Below, piece by piece: positions 12,925-19,184 of a stretch of DNA of 64,000 nt. The first letter of the stretch is position 1. Each line of letters begins with the position of its first letter. A program made the position numbers and the translations under genes. Under the pieces are notes generated by a model. It did not search any database, was not told the origin of the DNA, and was given only the letters and a program-made list of their open reading frames with translations. The DNA is taken from contig NZ_LR738724.1 in assembly GCF_902702775.1 (NCBI RefSeq), forward strand, positions 1,302,001 to 1,366,000, given 5' to 3'. The DNA comes from Streptococcus suis. Lineage in GTDB: Bacteria; Bacillota; Bacilli; Lactobacillales; Streptococcaceae.

Positions 12925-15474
12925 ATGAAATTAATCAAACAGCTTATTCACATACTAATCTCCATCGGATTGATTGGAAGTTTTTTTCTCTATGCACATC
13001 TCATTCAAAACGAATTAGGTTCTACCAAAAATGATGGAACTATAGAAATAATCGCAGAACAACCAAACCAAGTAATCGACAGCATCCAAATAAATGGACG
13101 CTATATTCATTCATCAGAAATTATAGAAAACCAATGGGGAATCAATGATGCTGATTTAATTCCTAACTTCTCTTCTCTAGGTGAGGAAAATTCACTCATA
13201 ATTAAATCATCCTCTTCTGTAAGAACCTTATCATTTGAATACTTTGTTAGTGAAAATCCGACTATTGTAAAAATTAAAGTTGGTGGACAATTGGTTGAAT
13301 CCGTTGACACATCAACTGGAGATAAATATAAAAATTTAGCCTTTATTGAACTTCCCTATACTTTACGGATAACTAAAGATAATCATTTTTGGTATCTCCA
13401 CTTAATAGTTCTTGCTTTAGGCCTATCATGCTTTATCTTAAATGGATCAACACGGAGAATCAAGAGAAGACATATCAGCATCTTAACAATATTATTAATC
13501 ACTCAATATATATTCACTACTTTTACATTCCCACGTTTATATCGCAACGAACTAGTACTATTTAATTCCAGTTTTAATAAAATGGAAACTCAACAGCTAT
13601 TAGTTGCACTGACTTACCTGATATTTTTTAGTCTTTTGGGATACAAACAACTCCGAGGTCATATCTCTAAAGCCTTCAAAACGATTAGTCTATCAGTGAT
13701 TTATCTTCTAGTTCCCATTTTTTCATTATTTATTATTGAAAATAGCTATTCACAATTCTCTACTCTTTCCCCAAACAGTCTTTGGAACAATCTAATCATT
13801 ATCGGAGTCCTCTACCTAATACTGGTCTTTACAACTAACCTACGATTTGCCAGCCTATTAATTCTGTCCGCTTCAGTATTTATTGGTATAAGTAACCAAC
13901 TTTTGATTGACAGCCGTGGTGCTCCTCTATTATTTTATAATCTTTTTCAAATCACAGATGGATTAAATGTAGCTTCTAGCGTAGCGATTAATATCAACAA
14001 TCGGATGCTACAAAGCATGGTATTTTCTTATATTTTATTGACCTTCTTTTTCTTTATCCCTAAATTATATTTACCAAAACTTCTACCTTCTAGAACGTTC
14101 TATTCTAGTTATGATTTCAAATGGCCGAAACGTTTCAGCAGAATCTTACTAGGATATATAACTTTAATAACAATCGTTCCAATGATTAATAAAACTGTCG
14201 TCTCTAATGCAAATATATCATTGAACTACTGGAGAATGTACGTGACCTACGGTCAATTTGGGCTGCCACTCTCGCTCGCCTCTTTCTATGAAGATAGTAA
14301 AATAACTAAGCCTGACGGATACTCAGTTCCCAAACTTAATGAAGTTCTTGAGAATTACTCTCCTGAAACAGAAAAACAAACAATCCGGCCTAATATTATC
14401 TTTATACAGAATGAATCACAGAGTGATTTTTCAAACTTACAGGGATTAAATATGGAGCCTGATCCACTTTCAAACCAACATGCTTTAACAGATAATGCTG
14501 TTCACGGTACATTAAACGTTTCTGTATTTGGAGGCGGAACAGCTAATACAGAGTATGAAGTTCTGACAAGTAACCCAATCAGTTTACTATCTTCTAATTT
14601 ATTTCCATATCAACAGATTATCACACAAGAACGACCAAGTTTTGCATCCTATCTAAAAGATAAAAATTATGAGACCGTGGCTCTACATCCTCAATCTGGA
14701 AATAATTACAACCGTCATGCAGTATATCCTCTACTAGGGTTTAATAAATCTTATTTTTTAGATTCGGAACCTGCTATTAGTAGCTTAGCACCACTAACAA
14801 TTAATCGCGGCTGGCCATCTGATCAATTCTTATTCAACGGAATAAAAGAACTTTATGCCCAAAAAGGAGACCAACCACTATTTAGCTTTGTTGTCACTAT
14901 GCAAGGACATGGAGGCTATCCAAGTACGGAAGAAATTTACCCTCGTGAAGTCAGCATTAATGGTTCAACATCTGAATACTTAGCTGAAACAGAATTTTTG
15001 ACCAGCATGAAGAAGACGGACGAAGCATTTGCTGATTTAATTACTTTCTTTAGCACTTACAAAGAGCCTACGGTCATCGTCATGTACGGCGATCACCAAC
15101 CTAGTTTGAGTCAAGAATTTTACGCGCAGTTTATGGATGAAAATAATCCTGCTGCTAAATATTCTACCCCTTTTGTGATTTGGTCTAATTTTGATATTAA
15201 GGAACGTGAATCTACAACTATTAGCCCAAACTATCTCGTTCCATATTTGATGGATATTTTATCCGAATCCGACTATGCCATTCCTCGATCACCTTACCAA
15301 CAATTTTTGAGCGATATGCAAATCGAAGCACCTATCATTACTAGTTGGGGAAACATCGATAATAGCGGTCAACAAATTGAAGACATGTCAAGCCTATCAC
15401 TTTACCAAACCTACTTACAACTAGAATACAATAGTGCCGTTGATAAACGACCTCTAACAGATCTATATGAGTGA
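12925..15474 (+). CDS. LtaS/GacH-like sulfatase-fold phosphoglycerol transferase of wall polysaccharide
   Basis: This protein of about 849 residues has an N-terminal membrane helix, an extracytoplasmic segment, a block of several membrane helices (about residues 155-430) and a C-terminal sulfatase/alkaline-phosphatase-fold domain from about residue 485. That domain shows IIFIQNESQSD, the VFGGGTANTEYEV block with the candidate catalytic Thr near residue 539, FVVTMQGHGGY and VMYGDHQPSLS metal-ligand motifs. GacH of group A Streptococcus and SccH of S. mutans have this plan and transfer glycerol phosphate from phosphatidylglycerol to the polysaccharide side chain. Here it is divergent from rgpA rather than inside the operon. 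The ATG at 12925 lacks a clear Shine-Dalgarno site. Alternative: a related LTA-synthase-like enzyme. Confidence 0.82.
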   Translation: MKLIKQLIHILISIGLIGSFFLYAHLIQNELGSTKNDGTIEIIAEQPNQVIDSIQINGRYIHSSEIIENQWGINDADLIPNFSSLGEENSLIIKSSSSVRTLSFEYFVSENPTIVKIKVGGQLVESVDTSTGDKYKNLAFIELPYTLRITKDNHFWYLHLIVLALGLSCFILNGSTRRIKRRHISILTILLITQYIFTTFTFPRLYRNELVLFNSSFNKMETQQLLVALTYLIFFSLLGYKQLRGHISKAFKTISLSVIYLLVPIFSLFIIENSYSQFSTLSPNSLWNNLIIIGVLYLILVFTTNLRFASLLILSASVFIGISNQLLIDSRGAPLLFYNLFQITDGLNVASSVAININNRMLQSMVFSYILLTFFFFIPKLYLPKLLPSRTFYSSYDFKWPKRFSRILLGYITLITIVPMINKTVVSNANISLNYWRMYVTYGQFGLPLSLASFYEDSKITKPDGYSVPKLNEVLENYSPETEKQTIRPNIIFIQNESQSDFSNLQGLNMEPDPLSNQHALTDNAVHGTLNVSVFGGGTANTEYEVLTSNPISLLSSNLFPYQQIITQERPSFASYLKDKNYETVALHPQSGNNYNRHAVYPLLGFNKSYFLDSEPAISSLAPLTINRGWPSDQFLFNGIKELYAQKGDQPLFSFVVTMQGHGGYPSTEEIYPREVSINGSTSEYLAETEFLTSMKKTDEAFADLITFFSTYKEPTVIVMYGDHQPSLSQEFYAQFMDENNPAAKYSTPFVIWSNFDIKERESTTISPNYLVPYLMDILSESDYAIPRSPYQQFLSDMQIEAPIITSWGNIDNSGQQIEDMSSLSLYQTYLQLEYNSAVDKRPLTDLYE

Positions 15475-15476
15475 TA

Positions 15477-15513
15477 AAAATAGCCTTGCTCGTTTTTGAG
15501 CAAGGCTATTTTA
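15477..15513. terminator. Bidirectional intrinsic terminator
   Basis: AAAATAGCCTTGCTC and GAGCAAGGCTATTTT form a 15-bp stem with a GTTTTT loop, A-rich on one side and T-rich on the other. It lies between the convergent phosphoglycerol transferase and glucosaminidase frames and can serve both strands. Confidence 0.9.
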
Positions 15514-15533
15514 TCATCAATCATCCAAAAAAC

Positions 15534-15971
15534 TTAATCATCTAAAAGATAAAGCTTGTAATTCTCGATAATTGATCGTAATTTTTCACCATATTTCGGA
15601 TCAGTAGCATATCCTGATTGTCTTAACGCAAGAATCGCTTGTTGATAATCAGTTGCCTCCCTAAAACTCTGGTAATTTTTTATTCTCCACGGAGTAGAGG
15701 TAAAGAACTTAGCATAGTCTGCTACACTTTCATTCCATGAATTATATTTTCTAAACAAGTGCTTTTCTTGCTTCTTCTCACCATCACGGTATTCATTGGT
15801 AATGATTTCAATTGTATCCCCCGTCCATGCAGCATTCGCTTTGATGCCAAAAAGATTATTCCCATGAGTCGCCAAGTATGACGTTCCCCATGCACTTTCT
15901 AGGATGGCTTGAGATAACATGACGCTAGAAAGGATAGAATTCGCTTTTGAATTTTGCTCAATTGCAGGCAC
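15534..15971 (-). CDS. Glucosaminidase domain in the -1 frame after the amidase gene (frameshifted or recoded C-terminal part)
   Basis: This frame encodes a FlgJ-like endo-beta-N-acetylglucosaminidase domain: MLSQAILESAWGTSYLA with the candidate catalytic Glu, NLFGIKANAAW, DYAKFFTS and SGYATDPKYGEKL. A GTG at 15971 could start translation, but no Shine-Dalgarno site precedes it and it lies inside the domain. The frame stays open upstream through SNDQKSFIANL and VGTAGTGIETGKLS to the stop codon of the amidase gene at 16040-16042. It has no signal peptide of its own. It is therefore best read as the C-terminal domain of the upstream autolysin, separated from it by a one-base shift, either a mutation or programmed -1 frameshifting at GGGAAAG. 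Confidence 0.8.
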   Translation of the reverse strand: MPAIEQNSKANSILSSVMLSQAILESAWGTSYLATHGNNLFGIKANAAWTGDTIEIITNEYRDGEKKQEKHLFRKYNSWNESVADYAKFFTSTPWRIKNYQSFREATDYQQAILALRQSGYATDPKYGEKLRSIIENYKLYLLDD

Positions 15972-16039
15972 TAGATTAGCTATGAAACTTTTCTGATCAT
16001 TAGAAAGCTTTCCTGTTTCAATACCTGTACCTGCAGTTC

Positions 16040-19000
16040 CTACTTTCCCTCTACAGCACCATACCAGTTCATCACACCTTGTGCCAATGCTTTCGCAAGA
16101 CGAGTGTGATAAGAATCTTGTTTGATAACTTGTAACTCCGAAGGATTATCCATAAATCCTAGCTCCACTAGAATAGCAGGAATTGCTGTCTCGCGAAGGA
16201 CTGCAAAAGTTTCTCTTCTTACGCCACGGTTAACTGCACCTGTTTCCTTAATTAAACTCTCCTGAACCTTGTTAGCTAAAATATCACTTTCAGCTAAACG
16301 AGTAGGGTTATTATGCATTTCTTTATTAATTTTAGGTTGGTATTCCGGATCGTATTGATACCAGTATGTTTCGATACCAGTTGCATTCGAAACTCCTGCA
16401 CCCGTCGCATTAAAATGGATACTAATAAATAAGTCTGCGTTGCTTGCATTCGTCATTCGTGACCTCTCTGTTTTGAAGTCTACATCATAATCACCTGTAC
16501 GGGTCATCAAAACATTGATTCCATATTTCAAGAGATTTTCACGCAACTTATTTGAAACAGACAAAGCAAGATTTTTTTCATGTACGCCTCCATAAGAAGC
16601 TCCTGAGTCTCGCCCTCCATGTCCTGGGTCAATATAGACTGTGTAGGAGCGCTGTACCGACGGGGTTGATAAATGAGTCGTTGTTCCACCTGCACCTGTT
16701 AGGCCACCACTTGAGTCCTTATAATATAAGTGAACCGTGTAGGTACCTGTACGATACTTATGGTTTTTCTTATTAACAGTTAACTTATAACTGCCATCTG
16801 ATTGACGAGTGGCTTCATACCAACGTATATCGTCTGACTGAGACCAGGTAGGTAAGAGAACACTTGCTATATCTTTCGGCGATGAAACATTAGTAACACG
16901 AACATCGAAGGTACCTTGGGCATCGTTACGATTTTCAATTGTGATGGTACCTGTTGGCTTCACTTCTGATAAATGAGTCGTTGTTCCACCTGCACCTGTT
17001 AGGCCACCACTTGAGTCCTTATAATATAAGTGAACCGTGTAGGTACCTGTGCGGTATTTATGATCTTTCTTATTGACAGTTAATTTATAACTTCCGTCTG
17101 CTTGACGCTTTGCTTCATACCAACGTAAATCATCCGTCTGTGACCAAGTGGGTAAAATAACACTTGCTATATCTTTCGGCGATGAAACATTAGTAACACG
17201 AACATCGAAGGTACCTTGGGCATCGTTACGATTTTCAATTGTGATGGTACCTGTTGGCTTCACTTCTGATAAATGAGTCGTTGTACCACCTGCACCTGTC
17301 AAACCACCATTTGAATCCTTGTAATATAGATGAACCGTGTAGGTACCTGTGCGGTATTTATGATCTTTCTTATTGACAGTTAATTTATAACTTCCGTCTG
17401 CTTGACGCTTTGCTTCATACCAACGTAAATCATCCGTCTGTGACCAAGTTGGCAAAATAACACTTGCTATATCTTTCGGCGATGAAACATTAGTAACACG
17501 AACATCAAAGGTACCTTGGGCATCGTTACGATTTTCAATTGCGATGGTACCTGTTGGCTTCACTTCTGATAAATGAGTTATTGTACCACCTGCACCTGTC
17601 AAACCACCATTTGAATCCTTATAATATAGATGAACCGTGTAGGTACCTGTGCGATACTTATGGTCCTTCTTATTAACAGTTAACTTATAACTGCCATCTG
17701 ATTGACGAGTGGCTTCATACCAACGTAAATCATCCGTCTGTGACCAAGTGGGTAAAATAACACTTGCTATATCTTTCGGCGATGAAACATTAGTAACACG
17801 AACATCGAAGGTACCTTGGGCATCGTTACGATTTTCAATTGTGATGGTACCTGTTGGCTTCACTTCTGATAAATGAGTCGTTGTACCACCTGCACCTGTC
17901 AAACCACCACTTGAGTCCTTATAATATAGATGAACCGTGTAGGTACCTGTACGGTACTTATGATCTTTCTTATTGACAGTTAATTTATAACTTCCGTCTG
18001 CTTGACGCTTTGCTTCATACCAACGTAAATCATCCGTCTGTGACCAAGTGGGTAAGATAACACTTGCTATATCTTTCGGCGATGAAACATTAGTAACACG
18101 AACATCGAAGGTACCTTGGGCATCGTTATGATTTTCAATTGTGATGGTACCTGTTGGCTTCACTTCTGATAAATGAGTCGTTGTACCACCTGCACCTGTC
18201 AAACCACCACTTGAGTCCTTATAATATAGATGAACCGTGTAGGTACCTGTGCGGTATTTATGATCTTTCTTATTGACAGTTAATTTATAACTTCCGTCTG
18301 CTTGACGCTTTGCTTCATACCAGCGTAAATCGTCTGACTGTGACCAAGTGGGTAAGATAACACTTGCTATATCTTTCGGTGACGAAACATTAGTAATACG
18401 AACATCGAAGGTACCTTGGGCATCGTTACGATTTTCAATTGTGATGGTGCCTGTAGGTTGTGTAACATTGACCGAACTGGAAGCTGTACTGACTCGAGCA
18501 CTTGGAACACTTGTAGAGCCATTCGAACTTCCTGCAATCGTATTGGAAGAACTTCTGGTCAGCGAATTCGAAGTACTACTTGTTGTACCTGCTGTCAAAC
18601 TAGAATTAACCGTTGAGCTTGTAGTAGCCGAAGTTGCTTCCTCCTCAATTTTAGACGAGATTGCATTGCTATTATTCAAAGCAGTAGGCTTCTCAGCCGC
18701 GCTTACAACATCCTTCTTCCACTCGAAACTATAATCTGATAAGGTCTGAAAACTTCCATCTGTTAATTGTGCTGTTAACTTCAGCGAAAAGACTTGGTCT
18801 TCCTCCGCAAATGTAGACCGATCCAAAACCGCTACGTATCTCCCCTGCTCATCCATTGAGAATGTGACAGTAATGCCGCTATTTGTTTCAGAGCTAAACT
18901 GGGCTGTAACACCAATAATTTCCCCTTGAATGTTCGATAGAATAGCTTTAATCTGACCAGCCTCATCAACGACAGATAGCTGCCCGCCAGTTTCAGCAAC

Positions 19001-19111
19001 CTGAGATGAAGAAACTTGACTAGATGGGGCATTTACCATATCCGCTTGAACAAGCTGAGCATTCAACGCGGATGCACACAAAGAAAGAAATAACAACGTT
19101 CTTTTTTTCAC
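16040..19111 (-). CDS. Secreted N-acetylmuramoyl-L-alanine amidase with six GBS_Bsp-like repeats
   Basis: The GTG at 19111, preceded by AAAGGAGATATTT, is preferred over an upstream TTG. It gives a 1023-residue protein with a signal peptide (VKKRTLLFLSLCASALNAQL) and an N-terminal beta-rich domain, then a Ser/Thr-rich linker. Six almost identical 100-residue GBS_Bsp-like repeats follow (about residues 219-818), then a zinc amidase_3 domain. Zinc and catalytic motifs are YTVYIDPGHGGRDSGA, VHEKNLAL, LFISIHFNA and AILVELGFMD. The enzyme should cleave the bond between MurNAc and the peptide stem outside the cell. The frame ends at TAG right after the domain, and a glucosaminidase domain continues in the -1 frame. 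The whole looks like a bifunctional autolysin used in daughter-cell separation or wall turnover. Confidence 0.88.
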   Translation of the reverse strand: MKKRTLLFLSLCASALNAQLVQADMVNAPSSQVSSSQVAETGGQLSVVDEAGQIKAILSNIQGEIIGVTAQFSSETNSGITVTFSMDEQGRYVAVLDRSTFAEEDQVFSLKLTAQLTDGSFQTLSDYSFEWKKDVVSAAEKPTALNNSNAISSKIEEEATSATTSSTVNSSLTAGTTSSTSNSLTRSSSNTIAGSSNGSTSVPSARVSTASSSVNVTQPTGTITIENRNDAQGTFDVRITNVSSPKDIASVILPTWSQSDDLRWYEAKRQADGSYKLTVNKKDHKYRTGTYTVHLYYKDSSGGLTGAGGTTTHLSEVKPTGTITIENHNDAQGTFDVRVTNVSSPKDIASVILPTWSQTDDLRWYEAKRQADGSYKLTVNKKDHKYRTGTYTVHLYYKDSSGGLTGAGGTTTHLSEVKPTGTITIENRNDAQGTFDVRVTNVSSPKDIASVILPTWSQTDDLRWYEATRQSDGSYKLTVNKKDHKYRTGTYTVHLYYKDSNGGLTGAGGTITHLSEVKPTGTIAIENRNDAQGTFDVRVTNVSSPKDIASVILPTWSQTDDLRWYEAKRQADGSYKLTVNKKDHKYRTGTYTVHLYYKDSNGGLTGAGGTTTHLSEVKPTGTITIENRNDAQGTFDVRVTNVSSPKDIASVILPTWSQTDDLRWYEAKRQADGSYKLTVNKKDHKYRTGTYTVHLYYKDSSGGLTGAGGTTTHLSEVKPTGTITIENRNDAQGTFDVRVTNVSSPKDIASVLLPTWSQSDDIRWYEATRQSDGSYKLTVNKKNHKYRTGTYTVHLYYKDSSGGLTGAGGTTTHLSTPSVQRSYTVYIDPGHGGRDSGASYGGVHEKNLALSVSNKLRENLLKYGINVLMTRTGDYDVDFKTERSRMTNASNADLFISIHFNATGAGVSNATGIETYWYQYDPEYQPKINKEMHNNPTRLAESDILANKVQESLIKETGAVNRGVRRETFAVLRETAIPAILVELGFMDNPSELQVIKQDSYHTRLAKALAQGVMNWYGAVEGK
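16043..16049 (-). other. GGGAAAG slippery heptamer next to the amidase stop codon
   Basis: On the minus strand the zero frame reads GAG GGA AAG TAG. The heptamer G-GGA-AAG fits the X-XXY-YYZ form for -1 ribosomal slippage and is immediately followed by the stop codon. After slippage the frame continues GTA GGA ACT and runs without a stop into the glucosaminidase domain. The same heptamer is used in phage lambda gene G/T frameshifting. Just downstream, TGAAAC and GTTTCA could form a weak 6-bp stem. Function is inferred, not shown. Confidence 0.5.
16658..18457 (-). repeat. Six tandem 300-bp units encoding GBS_Bsp-like repeats
   Basis: Units begin at a Pro codon at 18457, 18157, 17857, 17557, 17257 and 16957 and are each close to 300 bp (100 codons: PTGTITIENRNDAQGTFD and so on). 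They differ at few positions (RQADG or RQSDG, SQSDD or SQTDD, NRND or NHND), and variants are distributed mosaically. This is what unequal crossing-over or gene conversion would produce. The last unit is the most diverged and leads into the amidase domain. Confidence 0.93.
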
Positions 19112-19184
19112 AAATATCTCCTTTATGTATTTCACATGTAAAAACAACTATATTTCTCAAAATAGATGTAATTACACTAATCCT

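What the first reader, a model, noticed from the sequence alone, without database searches (positions are those of the whole stretch)
16040..16052. Candidate programmed -1 frameshift joining amidase and glucosaminidase domains
The amidase gene ends GAG-GGA-AAG-TAG. GGGAAAG is a valid X-XXY-YYZ slippery heptamer (the phage lambda G/T frameshift uses it), and the next codon is the stop. Slippage by -1 gives an unbroken frame into a complete FlgJ-like glucosaminidase domain that lacks its own signal peptide and Shine-Dalgarno site. The cell could make two autolysins in a fixed ratio: amidase alone and amidase plus glucosaminidase. A plain one-base deletion in an A-run would look the same; the exact heptamer in the right frame makes recoding worth testing. 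No strong downstream pseudoknot was found, only a weak 6-bp stem.
Basis: partly seen in the sequence, partly recalled or inferred. Interest (0 to 1): 0.75.

Follow-up and report, generated by a model that had tools for sequence, protein, structure and literature searches.

The report
Conserved frameshift making two-enzyme autolysin
A Streptococcus suis cell-wall-cutting enzyme ends at a built-in ribosome slip site that very probably lets some ribosomes change reading frame and add a second cutting enzyme, and related species keep the same arrangement even where the surrounding DNA has changed.

Summary
The amidase gene (minus strand, 19147-16040) ends GAG-GGA-AAG-TAG. The -1 frame runs from the heptamer GGGAAAG into a complete GH73 glucosaminidase domain.

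Among 284 Streptococcus genomes I found 19 loci with this amidase directly before this glucosaminidase. Fourteen are out of frame and all 14 carry GGGAAAG in the same phase; 13 have an intact -1 domain. Five are natural in-frame fusions and none has GGGAAAG.

Its pairing exceeds dinucleotide shuffles in 13 of 13 intact loci (interrupted by mismatches in one), in 0 of 5 in-frame fusions and not in the decayed locus. Arm sequences differ between lineages but still pair.

All 117 listed amidase records at 99-100% identity end GAVEGK; no window-type fusion appeared among 112 fusion-length hits. The P1/7 genome paper calls this domain a gene fragment (SSU1126).

No protein data were available; frameshifting itself is inferred.

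The parts
16040..19147 (-). 0-frame gene: secreted autolysin with six GBS_Bsp-like repeats and a C-terminal Amidase_3 domain, ending GAG GGA AAG TAG
   Evidence: signal peptide judged by eye from the N-terminus
16043..16049 (-). slippery heptamer G_GGA_AAG in the 0 frame
   Evidence: same heptamer in the same phase in 14 of 14 out-of-frame loci
16040..16042 (-). 0-frame stop TAG directly after the heptamer
   Evidence: directly after the heptamer in 12 of 13 intact loci, one codon later in G248
16027..16035 (-). 5' arm (TGCAGGTAC) of the long-range stem, 7 nt after the heptamer
15963..15971 (-). 3' arm (GTGCCTGCA) of the long-range stem, at the start of the glucosaminidase domain
15534..16049 (-). 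-1 frame coding region from the heptamer to its TAA (169 residues after the shared Lys)
15537..15971 (-). GH73 glucosaminidase domain (PF01832 positions 2-123 of 123)

Best explanation
This is a programmed -1 ribosomal frameshift site. Most ribosomes read GGA AAG, meet the stop and release the amidase autolysin. A fraction, paused by the stem that starts 4-9 nt after the heptamer, slip back one base on GGGAAAG and continue for 169 residues through a GH73 glucosaminidase domain. The result is a minor, secreted, two-enzyme autolysin sharing the signal peptide and Bsp repeats of the major product. Shown here: the sequence anatomy, its conservation, selection on the -1 frame, and the stem with lineage-specific pairing arms. 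Inferred: that frameshifting occurs, its efficiency, the fixed ratio, and the use to the cell.
For: (1) 14 of 14 out-of-frame loci carry in-phase GGGAAAG; 0 of 5 in-frame fusions do. (2) The -1 domain has dN/dS 0.09-0.58 (median 0.16) over 15 pairs of the six closest loci; G256b and G260 both keep the site at glucosaminidase dS 1.5. (3) Stem: dinucleotide-shuffle p 0.001-0.048 in 13 of 13 intact loci, 0.16-0.44 in 5 of 5 in-frame, 0.56 in the decayed locus; Fisher over one locus from each of six lineages 3e-10, over four in-frame loci 0.22. Protein-preserving shuffle, same loci: 1.4e-7 against 0.47. (4) Own arms pair better than swapped arms: 2 of 720 assignments as low, the true one included. 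(5) In G246, G251, G255 and G256a the -1 frame opens exactly at the heptamer, so the shift must lie within GGGAAAGTAG. (6) In three of those four there is no ATG, GTG or TTG before +129, inside the domain; the fourth (G251) has only a GTG at +90, also inside the domain. (7) All 117 listed amidase records at 99-100% identity end GAVEGK; the domain stands alone in a cluster of 401 sequences. (8) A review calls G_GGA_AAG highly shift-prone in E. coli (PMC5009743, passages).
Against: No peptide, reporter or ribosome-profiling evidence. For the window sequence alone, the fold of the 100 nt from the heptamer is not remarkable (z -1.24, 20 of 200 shuffles as good), and the protein-preserving stem test gives p 0.08 (G253 0.22). 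Short downstream windows (40 nt) show no stable fold in any locus beyond shuffles, so everything depends on the long-range pairing; its test windows were set after seeing the stems. In G253 the pairing is interrupted. No clear upstream Shine-Dalgarno-like stimulator and no H-type pseudoknot. In-frame fusions in relatives show recoding is dispensable in some lineages; trees do not settle which state is ancestral. dN/dS of the -1 domain is higher than that of the amidase (0.02-0.09).
Confidence: 0.9

Rival explanations
1. A plain frameshift mutation split an ancestral fusion gene; the glucosaminidase is a remnant, as annotated in strain P1/7 (gene fragment SSU1126).
For: In-frame fusions exist in relatives; Holden et al. 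2009 call the domain a gene fragment (PMC2705793, passages); one locus, G250, really has a decayed domain.
Against: The same heptamer in 14 of 14 out-of-frame loci, purifying selection on the domain, and a downstream pairing that is significant in intact out-of-frame loci and not in in-frame ones. G250 keeps the heptamer but has neither an intact domain nor a significant stem.
Confidence: 0.05
2. The glucosaminidase is made separately, by re-initiation after the amidase stop or from its own start.
For: Some distant relatives have an ATG in the linker (G260 and G256b at +66, G063, G259 and G248 at +93); the window has a GTG at +78; one promoter-like match lies just upstream of the junction on this strand.
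Against: Three near relatives (G246, G255, G256a) have no ATG, GTG or TTG before +129 and G251 only a GTG at +90, all inside the domain. The window's GTG at +78 lies in the stem's 3' arm and is GTA in those four. A separate product would lack the signal peptide. Two promoter-like matches were found where shuffles give 2.1.
Confidence: 0.03
3. Transcriptional slippage at the G/A run yields mixed mRNAs.
For: It would give the same two products from the same DNA; some relatives have five G followed by three A.
Against: The runs are short (slippage usually needs longer homopolymers, recalled). A downstream stem at ribosome spacing and the fixed codon phase fit ribosomal slippage.
Confidence: 0.02

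Closest known systems
Bacterial -1 programmed frameshifting at A/G heptamers followed by a stem (dnaX, IS3-type elements, phage tail G-GT; recalled apart from the PMC5009743 passages)
   Same: In-phase X_XXY_YYZ heptamer, stop shortly after, stem a few nt downstream, C-terminal extension in the -1 frame
   Different: Cellular gene for a secreted cell-wall hydrolase; the extension is a second catalytic domain; the stem closes a large loop (30-78 nt); the stop abuts the heptamer in 12 of 13 intact loci; no clear upstream Shine-Dalgarno-like element
Natural in-frame Bsp-amidase-glucosaminidase fusions in other streptococci (records named S. ruminantium, S. parasuis and, near 53-54% identity, S. 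suis)
   Same: Same domains; same domain order in the five loci read here
   Different: One reading frame; in the five loci read here no GGGAAAG and no significant stem; all product would be two-enzyme
Staphylococcal Atl bifunctional amidase-glucosaminidase (recalled)
   Same: One gene supplies both activities
   Different: There the two enzymes are separated by proteolysis of a single precursor; here the choice would be made by the ribosome
S. suis Atl as described (PMC9377611, passages)
   Same: Bsp-like domain plus MurNAc-LAA amidase, apparently the 0-frame product (identity inferred from architecture)
   Different: The passages seen name no glucosaminidase ('glucosaminidase' occurs 0 times in the main text)

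Membership tests
-1 programmed ribosomal frameshifting | X_XXY_YYZ heptamer in the 0 frame | tested here: met
   G_GGA_AAG at 16049-16043; 14 of 14 out-of-frame loci
-1 programmed ribosomal frameshifting | Downstream structure at a spacing of about 5-9 nt (range recalled) | tested here: met
   Stem of 8-13 bp in 12 of 13 intact loci; spacer 6-9 nt in eight of them and 4 nt in four near-identical ones; interrupted in G253
-1 programmed ribosomal frameshifting | Heptamer and open -1 frame conserved across divergent relatives, with selection on the -1 frame | tested here: met
-1 programmed ribosomal frameshifting | Upstream Shine-Dalgarno-like stimulator (common in bacteria, not universal; recalled) | tested here: inconclusive
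   only weak anti-SD pairing, partly in the heptamer itself
-1 programmed ribosomal frameshifting | Trans-frame protein demonstrated | not testable with these tools
   no proteomic data
H-type pseudoknot stimulator | Loop pairs with sequence 3' of the stem | tested here: not met
   loop-downstream duplex p 0.03-0.95 over 12 loci; only G063 (0.033) and G259 (0.030) below 0.1
GH73 glucosaminidase (PF01832) | Full-length domain with conserved active-site Glu (residue role recalled) | tested here: met
   PF01832 positions 2-123 of 123; E25 of the alignment invariant in 14 of 14; FlgJ structures match

The most novel reading that the evidence does not exclude
Streptococci keep a tuned -1 frameshift that sets a fixed ratio of a one-enzyme to a two-enzyme secreted autolysin. 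Its stem has been rebuilt with different paired sequences in several lineages, and is absent where the two domains are fused in one frame. It would be a cellular, non-mobile use of -1 frameshifting to control cell-wall digestion.
Probability: 0.6. Interest if true: 0.85.

Novelty: new member of a known kind. Interest (0 to 1): 0.78.

Why it matters
Conserved -1 frameshifting in ordinary bacterial chromosomal genes is known in few cases (recalled). Here it would act on an exported autolysin of a zoonotic pathogen, adding a second catalytic domain to a minority of molecules. It would turn an annotated gene fragment into a working gene, and would mean that work on S. suis Atl may have studied only the major product. 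Natural in-frame relatives make the question of why the ratio matters directly testable.

Tried and rejected
H-type pseudoknot: not supported. Rfam: no match at E <= 1 over 15500-16300. Upstream Shine-Dalgarno-like stimulator: nothing convincing. Viral contigs searched with the junction pattern: 0 matches. Frameshifted versions outside Streptococcus: none seen in the loci examined. Of 93 loci scanned (the 80 kept of 574 relatives, and 13 genus loci L018-L030 with 1500-nt flanks), only S. suis-named loci and G250's L027 had the amidase directly upstream; Jeotgalibaca L048 is a separate gene with its own start. Of 29 loci from the order-level search (L144-L172; one search matched 339 of 395 genomes) 11 had an amidase hit; amidase and glucosaminidase differ in frame in L144 and L145 (the S. 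suis group) and in L153, L155 and L161, where 588-741 nt lie between them; those three were not read further. The first alignment mixed strands and was discarded; redid it. A branching order for out-of-frame versus in-frame loci could not be resolved (three label changes on the trees drawn, one or two forced by well-supported branches). Ten paper searches listed no report of this frameshift that I recognised from titles and abstract starts; the library is open-licence only. Not done: upstream amidase check for glucosaminidase matches below its best loci; named DNA for many S. suis strains.

Full report
What is there. On the minus strand the window holds a 1035-aa ORF (19147-16040) with six GBS_Bsp-like repeats and an Amidase_3 domain. 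It ends GAG GGA AAG TAG. GGGAAAG lies in the X_XXY_YYZ phase, and the -1 frame continues to a TAA at 15536-15534, covering a full PF01832 glucosaminidase. In-phase GGGAAAG occurs once in 18,660 codons of the window's larger ORFs. Neighbours are a gene weakly like lipoteichoic acid synthases (far below that family's cut-off) and a protein with an LPKTS motif. This fits S. suis P1/7 SSU1125-1128, where a sulphatase, a glucosaminidase gene fragment (SSU1126), an amidase (SSU1127) and an LPXTS protein follow one another (PMC2705793, passages); the correspondence is by order and description, not by sequence.

Relatives. The glucosaminidase was searched in 284 Streptococcus genomes: 158 had a match at E <= 0.001. 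I examined the 30 loci returned (junctions read for L001-L019; L018-L030 by tblastn), the 14 junction-pattern hits in 13 genomes, and 18 larger stretches. Nineteen loci in 18 genomes have this amidase directly before this glucosaminidase. Thirteen have the glucosaminidase intact in the -1 frame: G000, G246, G251, G253, G255, G256 (two copies), G261, G260, G063, G259, G248, G218. A fourteenth, G250, has a decayed domain. All 14 carry GGGAAAG in phase. Five are natural in-frame fusions (G179, G252, G150, G247, G254) and none carries it. The next matches (49-52% identity) showed no amidase directly upstream; in G175 and G181 an amidase in the same frame lies downstream instead (continuity not checked). 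The 0-frame stop is TAG, TAA or TGA directly after the heptamer in 12 of 13 intact loci and TGG TAA in G248.

Selection. Over 15 pairs of the six nearest loci the glucosaminidase dN/dS is 0.09-0.58 (median 0.16) and the amidase 0.02-0.09 (NG86). G256b and G260 keep the arrangement at dS 1.5 in the glucosaminidase, G000 and G063 at 2.1. In G246, G251, G255 and G256a the -1 frame opens at the heptamer itself, so the change of frame must happen within about ten bases. Three of these four have no ATG, GTG or TTG before +129, inside the domain; G251 has a GTG at +90, also inside the domain.

The stem. Twelve of 13 intact out-of-frame loci have an uninterrupted stem of 8-13 bp whose 5' arm begins 4-9 nt after the heptamer and whose 3' arm ends 66-108 nt from the heptamer start; in G253 the pairing is interrupted. 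Using fixed windows (5' arm +9 to +28, partner +48 to +118) the pairing beats dinucleotide shuffles at p 0.001-0.048 in 13 of 13. The five in-frame loci give 0.16-0.44 and decayed G250 gives 0.56. Against shuffles that keep the encoded protein, p is 0.002-0.08 in 12 of 13, 0.22 in G253, and 0.26-0.53 in the five in-frame loci. Fisher over one chosen locus from each of six lineages (G000, G261, G260, G063, G248, G218): 3.2e-10 and 1.4e-7; over four in-frame loci (G247, a near copy of G150, left out): 0.22 and 0.47. Those windows were chosen after seeing the stems, so the p-values are somewhat favourable. Swapping arms between the six lineages weakens pairing (mean -17.8 own, -11.0 cross; 2 of 720 assignments as low, the true one included); G261, G063, G259 and G248 share a related stem, the other groups do not. 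In a scan of 251 positions nothing outside the site is stronger in 8 of 13 loci; 2-15 positions are in the other five (G253, G261, G063, G259, G218), and 91-157 in the five in-frame loci. Ordinary folding is a weaker test: 80-nt windows give z -0.8 to -5.5 in the 13 loci and +0.2 in in-frame G179, while 40-nt windows show nothing, and for the window alone the 100 nt from the heptamer are unremarkable (z -1.24). The case rests on the comparison.

S. suis as a population. The amidase-domain search listed the best 120 of 3866 proteins. All 117 at 99-100% identity end GAVEGK, most of them named S. suis and some unnamed; the other three (77% identity, YSIRK-type, named S. suis) end GAVGGK; none of the 120 is annotated with PF01832. 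The glucosaminidase exists as stand-alone records, one cluster of 401 member sequences. Ten of 40 such records checked begin with the -1 reading of the amidase end (MVW...GKV), a gene-calling artefact that shows the same junction. A search for fused proteins gave 112 hits: S. ruminantium at 97-98%, the rest at 54% or below, none near the 81% expected for the window type (the expectation is).

Mechanism. G_GGA_AAG is described as highly shift-prone in E. coli (PMC5009743, passages). Two tRNA-Lys genes with anticodon UUU were found and no CUU version by the same loop pattern; other CUU genes are not excluded. The shared signal peptide and Bsp repeats would export both products. The two-product ratio and its use to the cell are inference.

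Noticed in passing
records P0004-P0120; window 16043-19147: Amidase records come in length steps of about 100 aa (635, 735, 835, 935, 1035), which suggests that the number of Bsp-like repeats varies between strains.
   Followed up: no
L040 and L044 (genome G256): One genome carries two different copies of the amidase/-1 glucosaminidase arrangement, both with GGGAAAG.
   Followed up: partly
L110 (S. suis DE406T, G250): The glucosaminidase domain is decayed (stop and frame break inside) while GGGAAAG remains and no significant stem is found.
   Followed up: partly
stand-alone glucosaminidase records P0123-P0154: Ten database proteins beginning MVW...GKV are the -1 reading of the amidase end, a gene-calling artefact that marks this junction.
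   Followed up: yes
window 15470-15520: An inverted repeat (AATAGCCTTGCTC/GAGCAAGGCTATT) lies between the two convergent genes and may end both transcripts; the terminator scan did not list it.
   Followed up: no
L148 and L149 (G175, G181): In these genomes the glucosaminidase lies before an amidase in the same frame: the reverse domain order (continuity of the frame not checked).
   Followed up: no
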